From assembly GCF_015101885.1 (NCBI RefSeq), contig NZ_CP062941.1, forward strand, positions 744,001-808,000: a stretch of 64,000 bases of DNA, written 5' to 3'. A program made the position numbers and the translations under genes. The notes below the pieces were generated by a model that was not told the origin of the DNA, ran no database searches, and saw nothing but the letters and a program-made list of their open reading frames with translations. This document shows positions 17,094 to 34,445 of this stretch, one piece after another. Every line of letters starts with the position of its first letter. Positions within the stretch are counted from its first letter, which is position 1. This stretch comes from Massilia litorea (lineage in GTDB: Bacteria > Pseudomonadota > Gammaproteobacteria > Burkholderiales > Burkholderiaceae_D).

Positions 17094-18254
17094 TTATGCG
17101 TAACCGATAGCAAAAATGCGCATGGTCAGTTTATAGAGAAGGTAAGCCATTTCATAGCGCACGCGGCGCACCCATCCGATGCCCTCGAAGTCCTCCATGC
17201 GCACCACTTCGCCGTCGGCAATGCCGCGCTCGATGTGGGTACGCACGGCGCGCGCAAAGGCGGCGTTTTTCACGACGATATTCGCTTCCTGGTTCAGGAA
17301 CAGGGACAGTCCGTCGCAATTGCTGGAGCCGACCGTCGCCCAGTCGTCGTCGACCACGGCGATCTTCGCGTGCAACTGCGTCTTGCGGTATTCCACGACG
17401 TCGATGCCGTCCGCGAGCAGCTTCGGATAGAAGGAACGCGCGACGGCATCCTGCATCTTGAATTCGCCGACACCGATCAGGAGCGTCACTTGTACGCCGC
17501 GCCTTGCGGCCTGGGCCAGGGCCTCGCGGAACTTGCGGCCCGGCGCGAAATACGGATTGGCCAGCAGCACGCTTTTCCTGGCCTGGCCGATCGCTTGTAA
17601 ATAGGCGCGCTGGATGGTCCTCCGGTTGCGCAGGTTGTCGCGCACGACAAAGGCAGCGCGCATCGGGCGCGCGCCTTCGGTGGGCGGCGCTCGCCGCGTC
17701 TCGCGGAACAGCTCGATGCGGCTGAGCAGATCGAGGCGTCCGGCGCGCATCCATTGCGCCTGCGCTTCAAAGTGGATCTGGGCCAGCAGCGGCCCGCGTA
17801 CCTGCACCGCGAAATCCCAGCGCGGGGCGGACAAGGGCCGGTAGGGCTCGTAGTCGCACAGCATGTCGTCGTTGATGTTGATGCCGCCGACAAAGGCAAT
17901 TTCGCCGTCGACCACCGTGATCTTGCGGTGGGTGCGGGCGATGCCACGCTTGAACCAGGGGTTGAAGACGCGGTACTGGACGCCGGCCTGGGCAAAGGCT
18001 TCGGCGCGGCGGCAGCAGGCGCGGTGGCCGGTGCCGAACCAGTCGACCAGCACCCGCACCTTGACGCCGCGCCCGGCTGCGCGAATCAGCGCCGCTTCGA
18101 TGCCGCGCGCGACGGCGTCCTCGGCAAAGATATAGGTTTCGAACAGGATGTCGTGCCGGGCGGCGTCGATCGCGGCGATCATCGCCGGGAACAGCTGTTG
18201 TCCGGTTTCCAGCAGGGTGATGTCGTTGTTCGCTACATAGGTAACGCTGCGCAT
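17094..18254 (-). CDS. clsB: Cardiolipin synthase B-like phospholipase D protein
   Basis: 386 residues with two HKD motifs of the phospholipase D superfamily: THRKITVVDGEIAFVGG near 125 and LHAKIAVVDDDWATVGSSN near 305. ClsB-type enzymes make cardiolipin or phosphatidylglycerol by transphosphatidylation at the inner membrane. The start at 18254 lies four bases after the stop of the upstream nuclease gene, indicating translational coupling. E. coli has the same pair, ybhP next to clsB (ybhO), which strengthens both assignments. Confidence 0.88.
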   Translation of the reverse strand: MRSVTYVANNDITLLETGQQLFPAMIAAIDAARHDILFETYIFAEDAVARGIEAALIRAAGRGVKVRVLVDWFGTGHRACCRRAEAFAQAGVQYRVFNPWFKRGIARTHRKITVVDGEIAFVGGININDDMLCDYEPYRPLSAPRWDFAVQVRGPLLAQIHFEAQAQWMRAGRLDLLSRIELFRETRRAPPTEGARPMRAAFVVRDNLRNRRTIQRAYLQAIGQARKSVLLANPYFAPGRKFREALAQAARRGVQVTLLIGVGEFKMQDAVARSFYPKLLADGIDVVEYRKTQLHAKIAVVDDDWATVGSSNCDGLSLFLNQEANIVVKNAAFARAVRTHIERGIADGEVVRMEDFEGIGWVRRVRYEMAYLLYKLTMRIFAIGYA

Positions 18255-18258
18255 CGCT

Positions 18259-19071
18259 TCAGGCCAGCTGCAATTCGGCGACGATGGGCGCATGGTCCGA
18301 CAGCTTGGCCCAGATCGGGCCGGCCATCACCTGGGCGTTGTCGACCTTGAAGCCGCGCACATAGATGCGGTCGAGGCGGAACCAGGGCAGCGCGGCCGGG
18401 AAGGTGCGTGCCGGCGCCAGTCTCGGCTGGCGGCCGGCCCAGCCGCGCACCATGTCGCCCAGCGCCGATTTCGGCCCGAGTTCGTCGAACACCTCGACCA
18501 CGCCGAGCGCATTGCGCAGGCGCTCGCTGAGGGTATTGCGCCAGTCGTTGAAATCGCCGGCGATGAGGACCGGCTCGCCGTTCGGCGCCGACTTGTTGAC
18601 CGCTTCGATCAGCTGTTCGGTCTGGCGCCCGCGCCCGCCTTCGAACAGGCCGAGGTGGACGACATAGCAATGCACCTTGCCCGCCGGCGTTTCCAGCACG
18701 CAGTGCAGGATGCCGCGCTGCTCGTAGGCGTGGTCGGAGACGTCGTGGTTATGCGAGTTTTCGATCGGAAAACAGCTGAGCAGGGCATTGCCATGGTGGC
18801 CGTGGTCGTAGACGGCGTTCATGCCATAGGCGGAGTGATGCGACTCGCCGGCAAAGTATTCGTATTGCGCGGCTTCCGGCCAGATGCGGGTCTCGCGTTT
18901 ATGCTGGCCGTAGCGTGCGTGATGGCGGTCGTGCCGCCCTTGCACTTCCTGCAGGAAAACGATATCGGCGTGAAACTCGGCAATCGCCTTCTTAAGCGCA
19001 AGCACCCGGGGGGTACTGCGCAGCGAGGAGACACCCTTATGGATATTGTAGGTAGCGACACGAATCTTCAT
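18259..19071 (-). CDS. Endonuclease/exonuclease/phosphatase family protein, YbhP-like
   Basis: 270 residues of the metal-dependent EEP fold. Motifs in order are ATYNIHKG (residues 6-13), FLQEVQG, VVHLGL, AGDFNDWR and SDHAPIVAELQL. EEP proteins hydrolyse phosphodiesters in DNA, RNA or phospholipids. Pairing with a ClsB-like enzyme, as in E. coli ybhP-ybhO, suggests a membrane phospholipid role, but no direct function is established. Confidence 0.88.
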   Translation of the reverse strand: MKIRVATYNIHKGVSSLRSTPRVLALKKAIAEFHADIVFLQEVQGRHDRHHARYGQHKRETRIWPEAAQYEYFAGESHHSAYGMNAVYDHGHHGNALLSCFPIENSHNHDVSDHAYEQRGILHCVLETPAGKVHCYVVHLGLFEGGRGRQTEQLIEAVNKSAPNGEPVLIAGDFNDWRNTLSERLRNALGVVEVFDELGPKSALGDMVRGWAGRQPRLAPARTFPAALPWFRLDRIYVRGFKVDNAQVMAGPIWAKLSDHAPIVAELQLA

Positions 19072-30691: not shown

Positions 30692-31102
30692 ATGCGATTT
30701 ACTAACCAATCCATCATGCGCATCGCCGCCGTCCTGGCCCTGACCGCCGCTTCCACCTCGGCGTTCGCCCAGAGTGCCGAGTATCGCCGTGGCTACGAAG
30801 ACGGTTTTGCCGCCGGCCAGCGCGCCGCCCGCGATGACGGCGGCCGCGGCTACGGCCGCAACCGCCTGCATATCGAAGAAGCGACTTATGGCGCGCGCGG
30901 CGCGATGTGCGACGCGCGCCAGGCCGTTCGCCAGGAAGTCGAGCGAGGCGGCGCCATCATCACCGCCAACAATCAGTTGTGCGGCGATCCGATCCGTAAC
31001 GTCGAGAAGCGCCTGAGCATCGTCTACCGTTGCGGCGACGACGAACCGGTACGGGTGGTCGCGCGCGAAAACGAAACCCTGCGCCTGAGCTGCCGCCGTT
31101 AA
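30692..31102 (+). CDS. Secreted hypothetical protein with signal peptide
   Basis: 136 residues. A signal peptide covers about 1-26 (AAVLALTAASTSAFAQ; AFA cleavage). The mature part begins with a charged, glycine- and arginine-rich segment (EYRRGYEDGFAAGQRAARDDGG) and then carries three cysteines (MCDAR, LCGDP, YRCGDD), plus one near the end (LSCRR), so two disulfides are possible. GGAGA precedes the start. Family not recognised. It converges with the amidase-protease-nuclease gene, sharing four bases at the stops. Confidence 0.75.
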   Translation: MRFTNQSIMRIAAVLALTAASTSAFAQSAEYRRGYEDGFAAGQRAARDDGGRGYGRNRLHIEEATYGARGAMCDARQAVRQEVERGGAIITANNQLCGDPIRNVEKRLSIVYRCGDDEPVRVVARENETLRLSCRR

Positions 31103-33816
31103 GCATCCGCGCCCTCTCGACCGCGCGCGCGGCGCAAGGCTGCGTCGATCCGCTCGTCGAGCGCGCGGTCGGGCCCGATCCACTGTTCGGGCGCCGTTCC
31201 TGCGCTGCGGGCGGACAGGCGCAGCAGCACCGGGCGGTGGTCGGAGAAGCGCTTGAGGTAGTCGACCTGGCTCTTCTCCCTGGCGAGGATGAAGAAGTCC
31301 TGCGGCCCGTAGAGCCGCGACATGTTCGGCGACAGGAACACATGGTCGATGAGCGAGTGCGGGCTCTTGAGGTAGCTCACCGCCCCGGCCGCCTCGTCTT
31401 GTGCCGACAAGGGCTTGAAGTCGGCTTTGATGAGCGGGTCGAAATCCCCGCTCGCGAGTTCGGCATTGAAGTCGCCGCCCAGCACCCAGTCCTGGTCGGC
31501 ATCGTGCCGCTCGATCATCTCCTTGACGGCACGCGCGAGGATCTGCGACGCCATGCGCCGGCGCTTCCAGCCCTCGGCCATCGCCTTGAGATGGAGCGGC
31601 ACCAGGTTGAAATCGACGCCGTCGCCCGCATCCGAGCGTGCGCGGAAGCGAAATAGCGCCGGGTAGCGGTCGAAGATCTTGCCCGGCTTCGGCGCCACTT
31701 GCGACTCCGCCTCGAAGTCGCCGCTACGGAGACGAAACAGCGCGTCGATCCCGGCCGGCCAGGCGAGCTGCTCGCCGTCCACCGTGCCCGGGTTCCAGAG
31801 AACGGCGGTTGTCTGCTTCGACTCCGGCGAGTCGGGTTCGGAATGGAGGTAGCGCATTGGCAGCCCGAACTTGCGCTCGATGGTCTCTGCCAGCGCAGCC
31901 GTCGCCGGCGGCGAGGTCTCGACGAGTGCCCAGAGGTCGAGGCCAAGGTCGACGATCATGGTAGCGATCTCGTCGACCTTTTCGTCGTAGCGGTTGGCGA
32001 ACCACTCGATGTTCCAGAAGCCGATGTCGATGTCCTGCGTGGTCGCGTTATACAGGTCGACCACCCGCTCGGCGCCAGGCTGGGCGGCGTCCACCTGGCG
32101 CCCGGCGGCGCCGAAGAAACCGCTGAGCGTGTCGGACCCGTACACTTCGCCCAGGATCACGTCGATCATGGCGTTCGCTTCGCGGCCGCGGCGTGCCTCC
32201 AGGTCGAGCGCGATGGCGGCCAGCTTAATGCCTTCGTTGACGTATTCCGGCCTGAGTCCGTCCGAGTCCTGGATGCCATCGCGGTTAGGTTGCGACGCAT
32301 GATGGAGGGCGATGAGCCGGCCGCTGCGGTCGAACACGGGCGCGCCTGACGAGCCGGGCTCGGTATCGCTCGTATAGTGGAGGACGGCACCGTCGGGGCG
32401 AGCCGTGACGATGTCCGTGTCGTCGAGTGAAACGCGCTTGGGACGGCCACTCGGGTGATGGATGATGAAGGCCCGCTCCTCGGGCTGGATCGCGAAGGCC
32501 ACCCGCTCCATGCGGATGAGCGCGCCATCGGCCAGCTGCACGTCTTCTATCCCGACGAAACTGTAATCGAGCCCGTCCTTGATCGGACTGGTCACGAACA
32601 GCCGGTCGGGGCGCAACCGATAGCGCCGTCCCGGCGCCGGCTCGGTCTTGCGCCCGCTCGCGAGCGCCTGGGCGCTCAGTTCGTAGTCGAAGGCGACTTC
32701 CGCAGCTTCGGCCACCTCCGGCGAGTTCAGCACGTGGTGATTGGTAAGCAGGATGTTGGGCGCCACCAGGAAGCCGGTGCCACTCCAGCGGCCGCGGCGG
32801 CCGAGAAAGTCGACTCCCTCGGTACGGACGATACCGACCGCCTGGCGCTGCCTGGCGAGCCGCTCAAGGAAGGCGGCCTCGAGCGACTCATCGCGGCCGA
32901 TGATGATCTCCGGCCGGATGCCATCGCTGTCCGGCGGGCAGAGCCGTTCCTTGCGCCAGCCGCGCAACATCGCGCCGAGATCCTCGACGCCGGCCGCGCT
33001 GTTGATCGCGCGCTCGCGCGGGTTGGCGAGGAAGCCGATTGACAGGGACAGATCGCCGCCGTACGTCTCCCCGGCGGGACGCGGCGCGCCCGCGGGGTCC
33101 ATCCGCGCCACCTCGCCCTGAGGGGCGCGTTCGCTCGTCTGCGCATCGTCGAGTTGAATCACGTCGTAGCCGTCCTGGGGTTCCGCTTCGGGCCTGGTGC
33201 GAGGGGTAGCGGTCGCGGCGAGCAGCTCGGGCCTGGCCATGCGTCCGTCAGCGACCAGCCATCCCTTGACGGCCCCGGCGAGCGCGGCGGCGATCTTGTC
33301 CTTGTAGGCGTCGGTCTCGAGGCGCGCCTCCTCGGCTGCGACGTCCATGAAGCTCACCTCGACGAGGCAGGCCGCTGTCGTGGCCGCGTGTTGTTCGGGT
33401 CGCAGCACGCCGAAGCCACTCGACTTCACTCCGCGATCCTTGAGCCCGGTCGCCTTGCAGACAGCCGTCTGCACGAGCGTGGCCAATGCCTTCGAGTCGC
33501 TCGAGGCCGACCTGTGGTGCCAGGTTTCGGTGCCTTGCGCCGAGTGGTCGAAGCCATTGAAATGGATCGAGACGAAGGCGTCCGCCCGCGCTTGCCGGGC
33601 GATGTCGGCGCGCGCTTTCAGGCCGAGGTTGCGATCGGCGTCGCGCGTCAGCCGGGCCTCGACGTCCGACCCATTGAGTGCCTTGCACACGCGGCGCGCG
33701 AGGTCGAGGGTGAGGTCCTTCTCGAGCAGCCCCATCGGCCCCTCGGCGTGGTTCGCGTCCGAACCTCCGACCTCGCTGGTCCCGCCGTGCCCGGGATCGA
33801 TAACCGCAATCGCCAT
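31099..33816 (-). CDS. Amidase_3 - trypsin-like protease - EEP nuclease tripartite protein
   Basis: 905 residues from the ATG at 33816, which has a perfect AGGAGG at 33827-33822; an ATG at 33846 would add ten residues. Residues 1-187 form an N-acetylmuramoyl-L-alanine amidase: H10 in DPGHGG, E32 in LLEKDL, H85 in SIHFNG and E153 in LVEVSF. Residues 190-300 are a proline- and acid-rich linker. Residues 305-545 form a trypsin-like serine protease: H360 in TNHHVL, D417 in DGLDYSF and S490 in PGSSGAP. Residues 594-868 form an endonuclease/exonuclease/phosphatase domain: N602 in FWNIEW, E633 in LVETS, GGDFNAE, DH at 824-825 and SDHRPV. All three active sites look complete. No signal peptide or membrane helix is present. 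It lies alone next to nudB, with no partner gene. An effector or defence role is inferred from architecture only. Confidence 0.9.
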   Translation of the reverse strand: MAIAVIDPGHGGTSEVGGSDANHAEGPMGLLEKDLTLDLARRVCKALNGSDVEARLTRDADRNLGLKARADIARQARADAFVSIHFNGFDHSAQGTETWHHRSASSDSKALATLVQTAVCKATGLKDRGVKSSGFGVLRPEQHAATTAACLVEVSFMDVAAEEARLETDAYKDKIAAALAGAVKGWLVADGRMARPELLAATATPRTRPEAEPQDGYDVIQLDDAQTSERAPQGEVARMDPAGAPRPAGETYGGDLSLSIGFLANPRERAINSAAGVEDLGAMLRGWRKERLCPPDSDGIRPEIIIGRDESLEAAFLERLARQRQAVGIVRTEGVDFLGRRGRWSGTGFLVAPNILLTNHHVLNSPEVAEAAEVAFDYELSAQALASGRKTEPAPGRRYRLRPDRLFVTSPIKDGLDYSFVGIEDVQLADGALIRMERVAFAIQPEERAFIIHHPSGRPKRVSLDDTDIVTARPDGAVLHYTSDTEPGSSGAPVFDRSGRLIALHHASQPNRDGIQDSDGLRPEYVNEGIKLAAIALDLEARRGREANAMIDVILGEVYGSDTLSGFFGAAGRQVDAAQPGAERVVDLYNATTQDIDIGFWNIEWFANRYDEKVDEIATMIVDLGLDLWALVETSPPATAALAETIERKFGLPMRYLHSEPDSPESKQTTAVLWNPGTVDGEQLAWPAGIDALFRLRSGDFEAESQVAPKPGKIFDRYPALFRFRARSDAGDGVDFNLVPLHLKAMAEGWKRRRMASQILARAVKEMIERHDADQDWVLGGDFNAELASGDFDPLIKADFKPLSAQDEAAGAVSYLKSPHSLIDHVFLSPNMSRLYGPQDFFILAREKSQVDYLKRFSDHRPVLLRLSARSAGTAPEQWIGPDRALDERIDAALRRARGREGADA

Positions 33817-33980
33817 GCCGCCCTCCTGTCGGTGAACGTCATTCACACACCGGCTCGCGCTGAAAGCCGACAGCTTGATGATGTGTTAGACACCGCTGAG
33901 AAGCAGAGTTCAACCGCCAGCATGGCAGCGCAGCGCCAGGGGAGGACGTCCGCGCATCTGGCCGACAAATTCCGGCCTTG

Positions 33981-34445
33981 TCAGGTGTCGGCCCCACCCG
34001 ATCGCGCATGCCTGGGCAACTGCAGAATGGCTTCCGCATTCGACGACGAAAAACAGCGGTCCGCCGCTTCCAGCAAGGGGAGCCAGGCGTGGCGCAGGTG
34101 TTCGCGCGGGCTCAGGATAATCGGGATATCGCGCGGCACGCAGACTGAAAACACGTGCTCGGTGTTGTGGGTGACGCCGGGCGCGTAGCGATGGCGCCAG
34201 GTCGGATAGATCTCGTAGATGTTCGACAGGTTCCAGTCCTGCAGGCGGATGCGCTCGCCGTCGGCCACGATCCCGGTTTCCTCGAACAGTTCGCGCGTAG
34301 CGGTGGTCAGCAGCGGCTCGTCCAGCGCGTCGAGCGAGCCGGTAACGGACTGCCAGAAGCCGGGCCGGTCGGCGCGCTCGATCAGCAGCACTTCCATTTC
34401 ACGCGTGTGGATCACGACGAGGACCGATTCAGGAATCTTGTGCAC
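33981..34445 (-). CDS. nudB: Dihydroneopterin triphosphate diphosphatase (Nudix)
   Basis: 154 residues. The Nudix box is clear (GSLDALDEPLLTTATRELFEETGI, residues 37-60), and the protein begins KIPESVLVVIHT as in NudB. It removes pyrophosphate from dihydroneopterin triphosphate, an early folate step. It lies downstream of aspS on the same strand, separated by the terminator at 34482-34514; aspS-nudB is a common pair in Burkholderiales. Confidence 0.9.
   Translation of the reverse strand: MHKIPESVLVVIHTREMEVLLIERADRPGFWQSVTGSLDALDEPLLTTATRELFEETGIVADGERIRLQDWNLSNIYEIYPTWRHRYAPGVTHNTEHVFSVCVPRDIPIILSPREHLRHAWLPLLEAADRCFSSSNAEAILQLPRHARSGGADT

What the first reader, a model, noticed from the sequence alone, without database searches (positions are those of the whole stretch)
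31099..33816. Single protein combining a peptidoglycan amidase, a trypsin-like protease and an EEP nuclease
Three hydrolases attacking cell wall, protein and nucleic acid (or phospholipid) are joined in one chain, and each has its expected catalytic residues: H10/E32/H85/E153, H360/D417/S490, and N602/E633/D782/N784/D859/H860. There is no signal peptide or membrane helix, so the amidase cannot reach peptidoglycan by Sec. The protein may be delivered by a secretion system, released by lysis, or act as a self-destructive defence effector. Trypsin-like domains preceded by a short helical segment (here about 308-331) are known from bacterial conflict systems, which is suggestive only. I know of no described protein with this order. 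The gene stands alone in an accessory position with a perfect AGGAGG, and no immunity gene is evident; the secreted 136-residue protein converging on it (30692-31102) is the only neighbour candidate.
Basis: partly seen in the sequence, partly recalled or inferred. Interest (0 to 1): 0.85.

Follow-up and report, generated by a model that had tools for sequence, protein, structure and literature searches.

The report
Three-hydrolase protein with protease–nuclease core
One bacterial protein really does join a cell-wall cutter, a protease and a DNase-like enzyme; it belongs to a large, apparently undescribed family in which a fixed protease–nuclease pair carries swappable enzymes, most likely to take the producing cell itself apart.

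Summary
One uninterrupted 905-aa ORF on the MINUS strand (31099-33816) carries Amidase_3, Trypsin_2 and Exo_endo_phos (EEP) domains with complete active sites. The protease histidine is H361, not H360. It is not an isolated fusion: among the 120 best-listed of 328 homologues, 38 get the same three-domain call (two with amidase remnants), and all 120 keep trypsin then EEP, 27-34 residues apart. Around that core come amidases, GDSL/SGNH-like esterases, a subtilase or a second nuclease, up to five domains per chain. In 9 of 40 loci such modules are separate genes directly next door. The trypsin triad is intact in 120 of 120; the EEP set is incomplete in 16. A crude hydropathy rule flags a signal or TM segment in 0 of 120. 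The trypsin is sister to trypsins of 'NucA-trypsin' conflict systems (PMC7159879). Best reading: a cytosolic self-lysis executor commanded by its protease. Shown: domains, residues, kinship, constraint, insertion at an empty site. Inferred: trigger, cleavage, self-targeting. T6SS delivery and an immunity role for the 136-aa neighbour are not supported.

The parts
31099..33816 (-). CDS, 905 aa: Amidase_3 - disordered linker - trypsin-like protease - EEP nuclease-like domain
   Evidence: 328 homologues at E <= 0.001, 120 listed
33822..33827 (-). AGGAGG ribosome-binding site, 5 nt before the ATG at 33816
   Evidence: sequence
33265..33804 (-). N-acetylmuramoyl-L-alanine amidase domain (Amidase_3, residues 5-184; H10, E32, H85, E153)
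   Evidence: fold matches 4rn7 and CwlV 1jwq; residues complete in 43 of 46 aligned; dN/dS 0.20 and 0.18 against L009 and L011
32884..33246 (-). Disordered Ala/Pro/Glu-rich linker (residues 191-311), proposed tether and release region of the amidase
   Evidence: pLDDT under 50 over 197-270, 272-277, 292-294 and 298-312; gap between amidase and trypsin HMM segments varies 39-92, n = 46; cleavage is inferred
32824..32910 (-). Conserved lead-in of the trypsin fold (residues 303-331; lineage consensus ERIIGxxDLxxxxFLxxGxRxAxAVxRV)
   Evidence: consensus of 35 related proteins; first helix of the domain in the model
32176..32883 (-). Trypsin-like serine protease domain (residues 312-547; triad H361/D417/S490)
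32035..32175 (-). Fixed-length junction of trypsin and EEP (residues 548-594, contains GSDTLSGFFGAAGR)
   Evidence: gap between HMM segments 27-34 residues, sd 1.1, in 120 of 120; a pattern from this stretch was among the conserved ones chosen by the locus search
31207..32034 (-). Endonuclease/exonuclease/phosphatase domain (residues 595-870; N602, E633, H742, D782, N784, D859, H860)
33981..34445 (-). NUDIX-type ORF (nudB by eye), upstream flank of the insertion, same strand
   Evidence: adjoins the 136-aa gene in three relatives without the fusion at this site
30692..31102 (+). Small protein (136 aa) with a signal-peptide-like N-terminus, converging flank whose stop codon overlaps that of the fusion gene
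   Evidence: present without the fusion gene beside it in L102, L111, L113

Best explanation
It is a cytosolic, self-directed cell-dismantling enzyme. The constant unit is a trypsin-like protease joined at fixed spacing to a DNase-I-like nuclease, with a peptidoglycan amidase tethered by a long disordered linker. Proposed working: the protein is made inactive or sequestered. On a stress or infection signal the protease becomes active, perhaps by oligomerisation. It cuts the linker and/or other cell proteins, frees or unmasks the nuclease and the amidase, and the cell loses its DNA and, once the inner membrane fails, its wall. Relatives swap the amidase for other wall hydrolases, GDSL/SGNH-like esterases or a subtilase, so dismantling of a bacterial cell is the shared theme. 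SHOWN: domain content, intact catalytic residues, constraint on all three domains in the window's lineage, a constant protease, no recognisable export signal, kinship of the protease to NucA-linked trypsins, accessory insertion. INFERRED: that the target is the producing cell, that the protease triggers the rest, the cleavage site and the signal. I give 'self-directed lysis/conflict executor' about 0.5 and the linker-cleavage detail about 0.3.
For: Trypsin triad 120 of 120, while the EEP set is incomplete in 16 of 120 (3 of them cut short) and the Ami3 set in 3 of 46: the protease is the indispensable part. In a same-genus pair with a truncated amidase and a dead EEP, dN/dS is 0.215 for the trypsin, 0.37 for the EEP and 0.45 for the amidase remnant. 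Against L009 and L011 the window gene has 0.12-0.29 for all three domains. Trypsin-EEP gap 27-34 aa, sd 1.1 (n = 120), against 39-92, sd 11.7 (n = 46) for amidase-trypsin. Signal- or TM-like segment in 0 of 120. Of 41 related non-EEP proteins at hand, 35 were scanned and 29 carry Endonuclease_NS; EEP- and NUC1-linked trypsins lie together apart from HtrA-type ones of the window's genome, 100/99. Extra hydrolases are fused, or direct neighbours on the same strand in 9 of 40 loci. NucA-trypsin systems are already proposed to act by a proteolytic cascade, with peptidoglycan-attacking partners (PMC7159879 section 32). In LypC (trypsin plus endonuclease) the protease serine is needed for self-lysis and the nuclease residues are not (PMC13236601 section 9). 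In Hachiman a trypsin-like protease activates a pro-nuclease (PMC12799240, Results part 1).
Confidence: 0.5

Rival explanations
1. An antibacterial weapon delivered to rivals by a secretion system (T6SS, contractile injection or other) or in vesicles, its three domains attacking wall, protein and DNA of the target.
For: The window genome has a T6SS marker, as do the three other carriers in its family. Wall hydrolases and nucleases are typical cargo (recalled). Relatives with GDSL, patatin and PLD genes nearby lie on conjugative rhizobial plasmids.
Against: T6SS marker in 14 of 25 chosen carriers, not found in 11 (some are incomplete MAGs), against 26 of 60 family genomes, two of them carriers; eCIS marker in 3 of 25. 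The T6SS marker of the window genome lies 0.55 Mb away. No PAAR, VgrG, Rhs or similar domain among the Pfam matches. No immunity gene recognised: the converging neighbour occurs without the fusion.
Confidence: 0.2
2. A cytosolic stockpile of digestive enzymes that acts only after the cell has been lysed by something else (phage, predator, toxin), clearing DNA, protein and wall debris or harming the attacker.
For: Explains the lack of export signal, the stand-alone gene, the breadth of substrates of the modules and the absence of a recognised sensor.
Against: Does not explain why the protease is joined at fixed spacing to the nuclease, nor kinship to NucA-trypsin systems, some of which encode STAND or EAD1 components (PMC7159879 section 32).
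Confidence: 0.15
3. A regulatory protease in which the amidase and EEP domains serve mainly as binding or targeting modules.
For: Only the trypsin triad is universal; 16 of 120 have an incomplete EEP set (three of these cut short) and some a truncated amidase, with the trypsin still constrained.
Against: Amidase residues complete in 43 of 46 and EEP residues in 104 of 120; the same lineage recruits many unrelated hydrolases.
Confidence: 0.1

Closest known systems
NucA-trypsin conflict system ('System 3', Kaur et al. 2020, PMC7159879; section 32 read in full; other passages)
   Same: Trypsin-like peptidase and nuclease in one chain; in some an extra subtilisin; peptidoglycan-attacking partners. 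Our trypsin is sister to NucA-linked trypsins.
   Different: The nuclease is EEP, not NucA; amidase, esterase and subtilase are fused or neighbouring instead of recruited through EAD1; no STAND or EAD1 gene recognised beside it. [quoted passage not shown] supplements not seen).
LypC of the Caulobacter LypABC CARD-NLR-like lysis system (PMC13236601; abstract, section 9 and Discussion read)
   Same: N-terminal trypsin-like domain, C-terminal endonuclease; protease essential and nuclease residues dispensable for self-lysis, mirroring our conservation pattern.
   Different: Its trypsin gives no hit to our trypsin profile at E 10, while its nuclease matches our NUC1 profile at 157 bits. No amidase described. 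Works with LypA and LypB.
Protease-activated pro-nuclease pairs of Hachiman/AVAST and canu (PMC12799240; abstract, part 1 of 2 of Results, Discussion read)
   Same: Trypsin-like protease functionally coupled to a DNase.
   Different: MBL-fold nuclease in a separate gene, protease fused to defence enzymes; here an EEP fold in the same chain.
Amidase_3 endolysins and autolysins (CwlV, CwlD, AmiA-C; phage endolysins phrog_435)
   Same: Fold and zinc/catalytic residues of the N-terminal domain.
   Different: No export signal recognised, no phage context: phage hits cover the amidase part only in the 20 of 69 rows listed; none of 32 pattern matches in viral contigs encodes a relative.

Membership tests
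NucA-trypsin System 3 | Trypsin-like peptidase, catalytically intact | tested here: met
   Trypsin_2 E 4.9e-18; triad present and invariant in 120 of 120
NucA-trypsin System 3 | Peptidase lineage shared with NucA-linked trypsins | tested here: met
   29 of 35 scanned non-EEP relatives carry Endonuclease_NS (6 further ones left out); grouped apart from the window genome's HtrA-like proteins, 100/99, with a long-branch warning by the program
NucA-trypsin System 3 | NucA (Endonuclease_NS, HNH) nuclease | tested here: not met
   EEP domain instead; the genome's one Endonuclease_NS match is in a separate 296-aa frame elsewhere. P0116 has both EEP and NucA
NucA-trypsin System 3 | EAD1 adaptor or STAND partner | tested here: inconclusive
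   No such hit in the protein; neighbours not fully annotated, EAD1 not sought genome-wide; the paper says the core also occurs without EAD1
LypC / CARD-NLR lysis module | Trypsin domain of the LypC type | tested here: not met
   L141, inferred to be LypC from its published numbers (662 aa, S296, H471, N505), gives no hit to our trypsin profile at E 10
LypC / CARD-NLR lysis module | LypA (CARD-trypsin-ATPase) and LypB (NLR) partners | tested here: inconclusive
   None recognised adjacent; 8 Trypsin_2 matches in the genome were listed but not examined for ATPase domains
Gated nuclease-protease pair (Hachiman/AVAST) | MBL-fold pro-nuclease gene beside a protease fusion | tested here: not met
   EEP fold in the same chain
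Gated nuclease-protease pair (Hachiman/AVAST) | Nuclease unmasked by proteolysis | not testable with these tools
   Needs biochemistry; a low-confidence EEP loop (806-820) and a stretch just behind the domain (878-882) are at most suggestive
T6SS effector | Delivery or adaptor domain, T6SS linkage, or immunity gene | tested here: not met
   No such domain; marker 0.55 Mb away and not found in 11 of 25 chosen carriers; neighbour occurs without the fusion
Amidase_3 (N-acetylmuramoyl-L-alanine amidase) | Profile match and zinc/catalytic residues | tested here: met
   E 1.3e-40; H10, E32, H85, E153
EEP superfamily | Profile match and metal/catalytic residues | tested here: met

The most novel reading that the evidence does not exclude
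The protein represents a widespread, undescribed class of self-contained 'dismantling polyenzymes': a protease-nuclease core that carries swappable wall, lipid and protein hydrolases and, once triggered, processes itself into a complete cell-destruction kit. If so, the fusions name the kinds of lytic effectors (wall amidases, GDSL-like esterases, subtilases) that remain unidentified in comparable protease-nuclease lysis systems such as LypABC.
Probability: 0.35. Interest if true: 0.85.

Novelty: new variant of a known kind. Interest (0 to 1): 0.68.

Why it matters
Bacterial immune and lysis systems built on trypsin-like proteases end in an execution step that is often unknown; the LypABC authors state that their lytic effectors are unidentified. 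This family fuses candidate executors to the protease, so a one-gene, three-active-site mutant set could test protease-commanded lysis directly. It also extends the NucA-trypsin idea to a second nuclease fold and to chains of four or five domains, and its carriage is sporadic (4 of 392 genomes of the family at E 1e-40, own genome included), as expected of accessory conflict genes.

Tried and rejected
Frameshift artefact: rejected (one ORF, many homologues). Phage endolysin: not supported (only says that none of 32 pattern matches encoded a relative). Immunity role of the 136-aa neighbour: rejected. T6SS/eCIS dedication: not supported; the 25 carriers were chosen by me from the loci at hand, some are incomplete MAGs, and the T6SS control is from the window's family only. 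In-situ origin from the housekeeping EEP gene that follows nudB in at least 15 of 29 genus relatives (counted by eye, which printed two ORFs per locus): no support, since the fusion's EEP goes with its trypsin in other phyla and the window still has that housekeeping gene (18259-19071). A short motif seemingly repeated before trypsin and EEP: both sites matched in only 2 of 15 sequences, dropped. LypC as a close homologue: rejected for the trypsin. The C-terminal module that I labelled 'CtermLys' by eye has no Pfam match and no convincing PHROG match, so that label is unproven. The stand-alone 'SGNH' genes of L007 and L012 have no Pfam match either; the name rests on our profile also matching modules that Pfam calls Lipase_GDSL. 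DUF2272 and Amidase_2 rest on Pfam for P0050 and P0058, the GH108-like label on a sub-cut-off PG_binding_3 match in P0050; elsewhere on profiles built from one to a few proteins. '40 trypsin-EEP alone' may hide unmodelled regions. Residue counts for the amidase came from a poor alignment and are replaced. PADLOC gave only weak RT-protease matches. The viral structure library gave 50 listed rows named mostly as single-domain trypsin or EEP proteins of large viruses, not followed. Rows dropped: only the 120 listed of 328 homologues were used, and 7997 candidates were scored; 80 of 530 confirmed genome loci were kept, 79 distinct; 35 of 41 non-EEP relatives at hand went into; 44 loci into; 12 of the 120 proteins and locus segments of at least 180 aa into the tree; L034's GH108-like neighbour, 1.9 kb away on the other strand, is not counted as linked. 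My ORF caller is crude and missed some genes in GC-rich loci.
Full report
OBSERVATION. The ORF lies on the minus strand, 31099-33816, 905 aa, no internal stop. Pfam finds Amidase_3 (5-184), Trypsin_2 (346-504) and Exo_endo_phos (601-860), each above its cut-off. The start has AGGAGG at 5 nt. That these positions are the catalytic ones is recalled from the families.

FAMILY. A database search gave 328 homologues, of which the best 120 were listed and used. With profiles built here all 120 hold trypsin followed by EEP, which is partly due to listing by whole-length similarity. 38 read Amidase_3-trypsin-EEP (P0018 and P0019 with remnants of the amidase), 40 trypsin-EEP alone. The others add an SGNH/GDSL-like domain in front or behind, Amidase_2 with DUF2272 and a GH108-like segment, a subtilase, an unassigned C-terminal module or NUC1: 15 architectures in all. 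P0050 carries DUF2272, Amidase_2, a sub-cut-off PG_binding_3 match, trypsin and EEP; P0047 subtilase, Amidase_3, trypsin and EEP. Myxococcus L013 and Mesorhizobium L016 add endonuclease I.

WHICH PART MATTERS MOST. The triad is complete in 120 of 120, the EEP set in 104 of 120 (three of the 16 failures are cut short) and the Ami3 set in 43 of 46. Against Massilia soli (L009) and Phenylobacterium (L011), dN/dS is 0.20/0.18 for the amidase, 0.20/0.12 for the trypsin and 0.29/0.17 for the EEP (synonymous sites partly near saturation). Even L009 has changed two EEP residues (D782A, N784D). Two same-genus copies (L089, L090) with a shortened amidase and dead EEP keep the triad; between them dN/dS is 0.215 (trypsin), 0.37 (EEP) and 0.45 (amidase remnant). 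The window gene against L089 gives 0.25, 0.51 and 0.45.

SPLIT FORMS. In 9 of 40 loci with an EEP gene the other hydrolase is a separate gene directly adjacent on the same strand: SGNH-Ami3 in L004, L005, L018, L041 (gap 9-41 bp) and L021 (overlap 16 bp), SGNH in L007, L012, L020 (9-12 bp), subtilase in L045 (15 bp). In three more (L032, L033, L047) a subtilase is divergent at 0.6-2.3 kb. Fusion and adjacency together argue that these enzymes act as one unit. In R. etli plasmid L008 a trypsin-PLD and a patatin gene follow in the same direction.

KINSHIP. Related proteins without EEP mostly carry NucA: 29 of the 35 scanned, of 41 at hand. In the tree (98 rows) EEP-linked and NUC1-linked trypsins lie together, separated from the window genome's HtrA-like proteins (100/99). 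The mostly proteobacterial EEP clade with the window protein (34 rows, 100/98) is sister to the NUC1 clade (39 rows, 100/98; join 95/84). A second EEP group of 18 rows lies outside (89/71), so EEP-linked trypsins need not be one clade. The program warns of long branches at the outgroup. The genome's own paralogue L002 falls with the NUC1 clade. The lineage reaches contigs binned as archaea, Bacteroidota, Planctomycetota, Acidobacteriota and Cyanobacteriota, many of them MAGs. Kaur et al. described NucA-trypsin systems as conflict systems likely run by a proteolytic cascade and coupled to peptidoglycan attack (PMC7159879, section 32 read). Word-start searches of their main text find none of EEP, exonuclease, amidase, SGNH or GDSL. 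Of PMC8195603 I saw passages only.

LYPC. In Caulobacter, LypC (trypsin plus endonuclease) needs its protease serine but not its nuclease residues for self-lysis, and the lytic effector is unknown (PMC13236601). I found a protein with exactly its published numbers in an unnamed Caulobacteraceae genome; its nuclease matches our NUC1 profile, its trypsin does not match ours. So it is a functional analogy with a shared nuclease partner, not a membership.

GENOMIC SETTING. Of 60 genus relatives searched with nudB, 29 loci were fetched. In 3 of these 29 the nudB and 136-aa genes lie 20-40 bp apart (aligned ends) with nothing between (L102, L111, L113). The fusion is therefore an insertion between two convergent genes, and the small gene is not its partner. 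Two of these three genomes (G223, G367) carry the decayed copy elsewhere. The gene's GC (0.681) and GC3 (0.86) resemble those of neighbours. In 392 genomes of the family (Oxalobacteraceae, inferred from G011 = Massilia soli), 4 have a match at E 1e-40, own genome included. No relative found in viral contigs. In plasmids 5 of 142 records with a hit cover at least 80% of the query, each joined from two or three pieces.

DELIVERY. 0 of 120 homologues have a signal-like N-terminus or TM segment by a crude hydropathy rule that does flag the secreted neighbour. T6SS and eCIS markers do not track carriage: 14 and 3 of 25 chosen carriers; T6SS 26 of 60 in the family, two of the 60 being carriers.

CONCLUSION. 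The fusion is real, conserved and constrained. The most economical reading is a self-lysis or conflict executor of the NucA-trypsin kind in which an EEP nuclease replaces NucA and the wall-degrading effector is fused. The trigger, the cleavage and the target remain to be tested. Literature absence rests in an open-access library only; of the papers listed in my searches I opened four (PMC7159879, PMC8195603, PMC12799240, PMC13236601).

Noticed in passing
G000:C1:4120299-4121132 (L002), outside the window: The same genome has a second modular protein of the wider lineage: a 784-aa trypsin with the same lead-in motif and a weak, sub-cut-off permuted papain-like (Peptidase_C92) match at its C-terminus.
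   Followed up: partly
window 18259-19071 (minus) and 17094-18293 (minus): A housekeeping-type EEP gene followed by a cardiolipin-synthase-like gene (by eye). In at least 15 of 29 genus relatives that EEP gene lies close downstream of nudB, but here it is about 15 kb away, so the nudB neighbourhood has been rearranged.
   Followed up: partly
P0014, P0018-P0023; L089, L090: A group in which the EEP site has decayed in a shared pattern (E633G or A, H742D, D782G, N784D, D859E) while the trypsin stays intact; P0018-P0023 also have a shortened or unrecognised amidase.
   Followed up: yes
L006:8903-14053, L008:8864-11443: Plasmid-borne rhizobial giants: GDSL-Amidase_3-M74-subtilase (1651 aa as annotated) and GDSL-Amidase_3-M15, so the toolbox also exists without trypsin in the same chain.
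   Followed up: no
L005:15391-16062, L041:13462-14154: A C-terminal module of about 220 aa (motif HSEGERGLLPLP in P0026 and HSLGERGLLPLP in P0085) in several relatives matches no Pfam family and no convincing PHROG.
   Followed up: partly
L022 and L045: Trypsin-EEP proteins in contigs binned as the archaeon Nitrosopumilus, L045 with a subtilase gene 15 bp upstream; could be binning errors.
   Followed up: no
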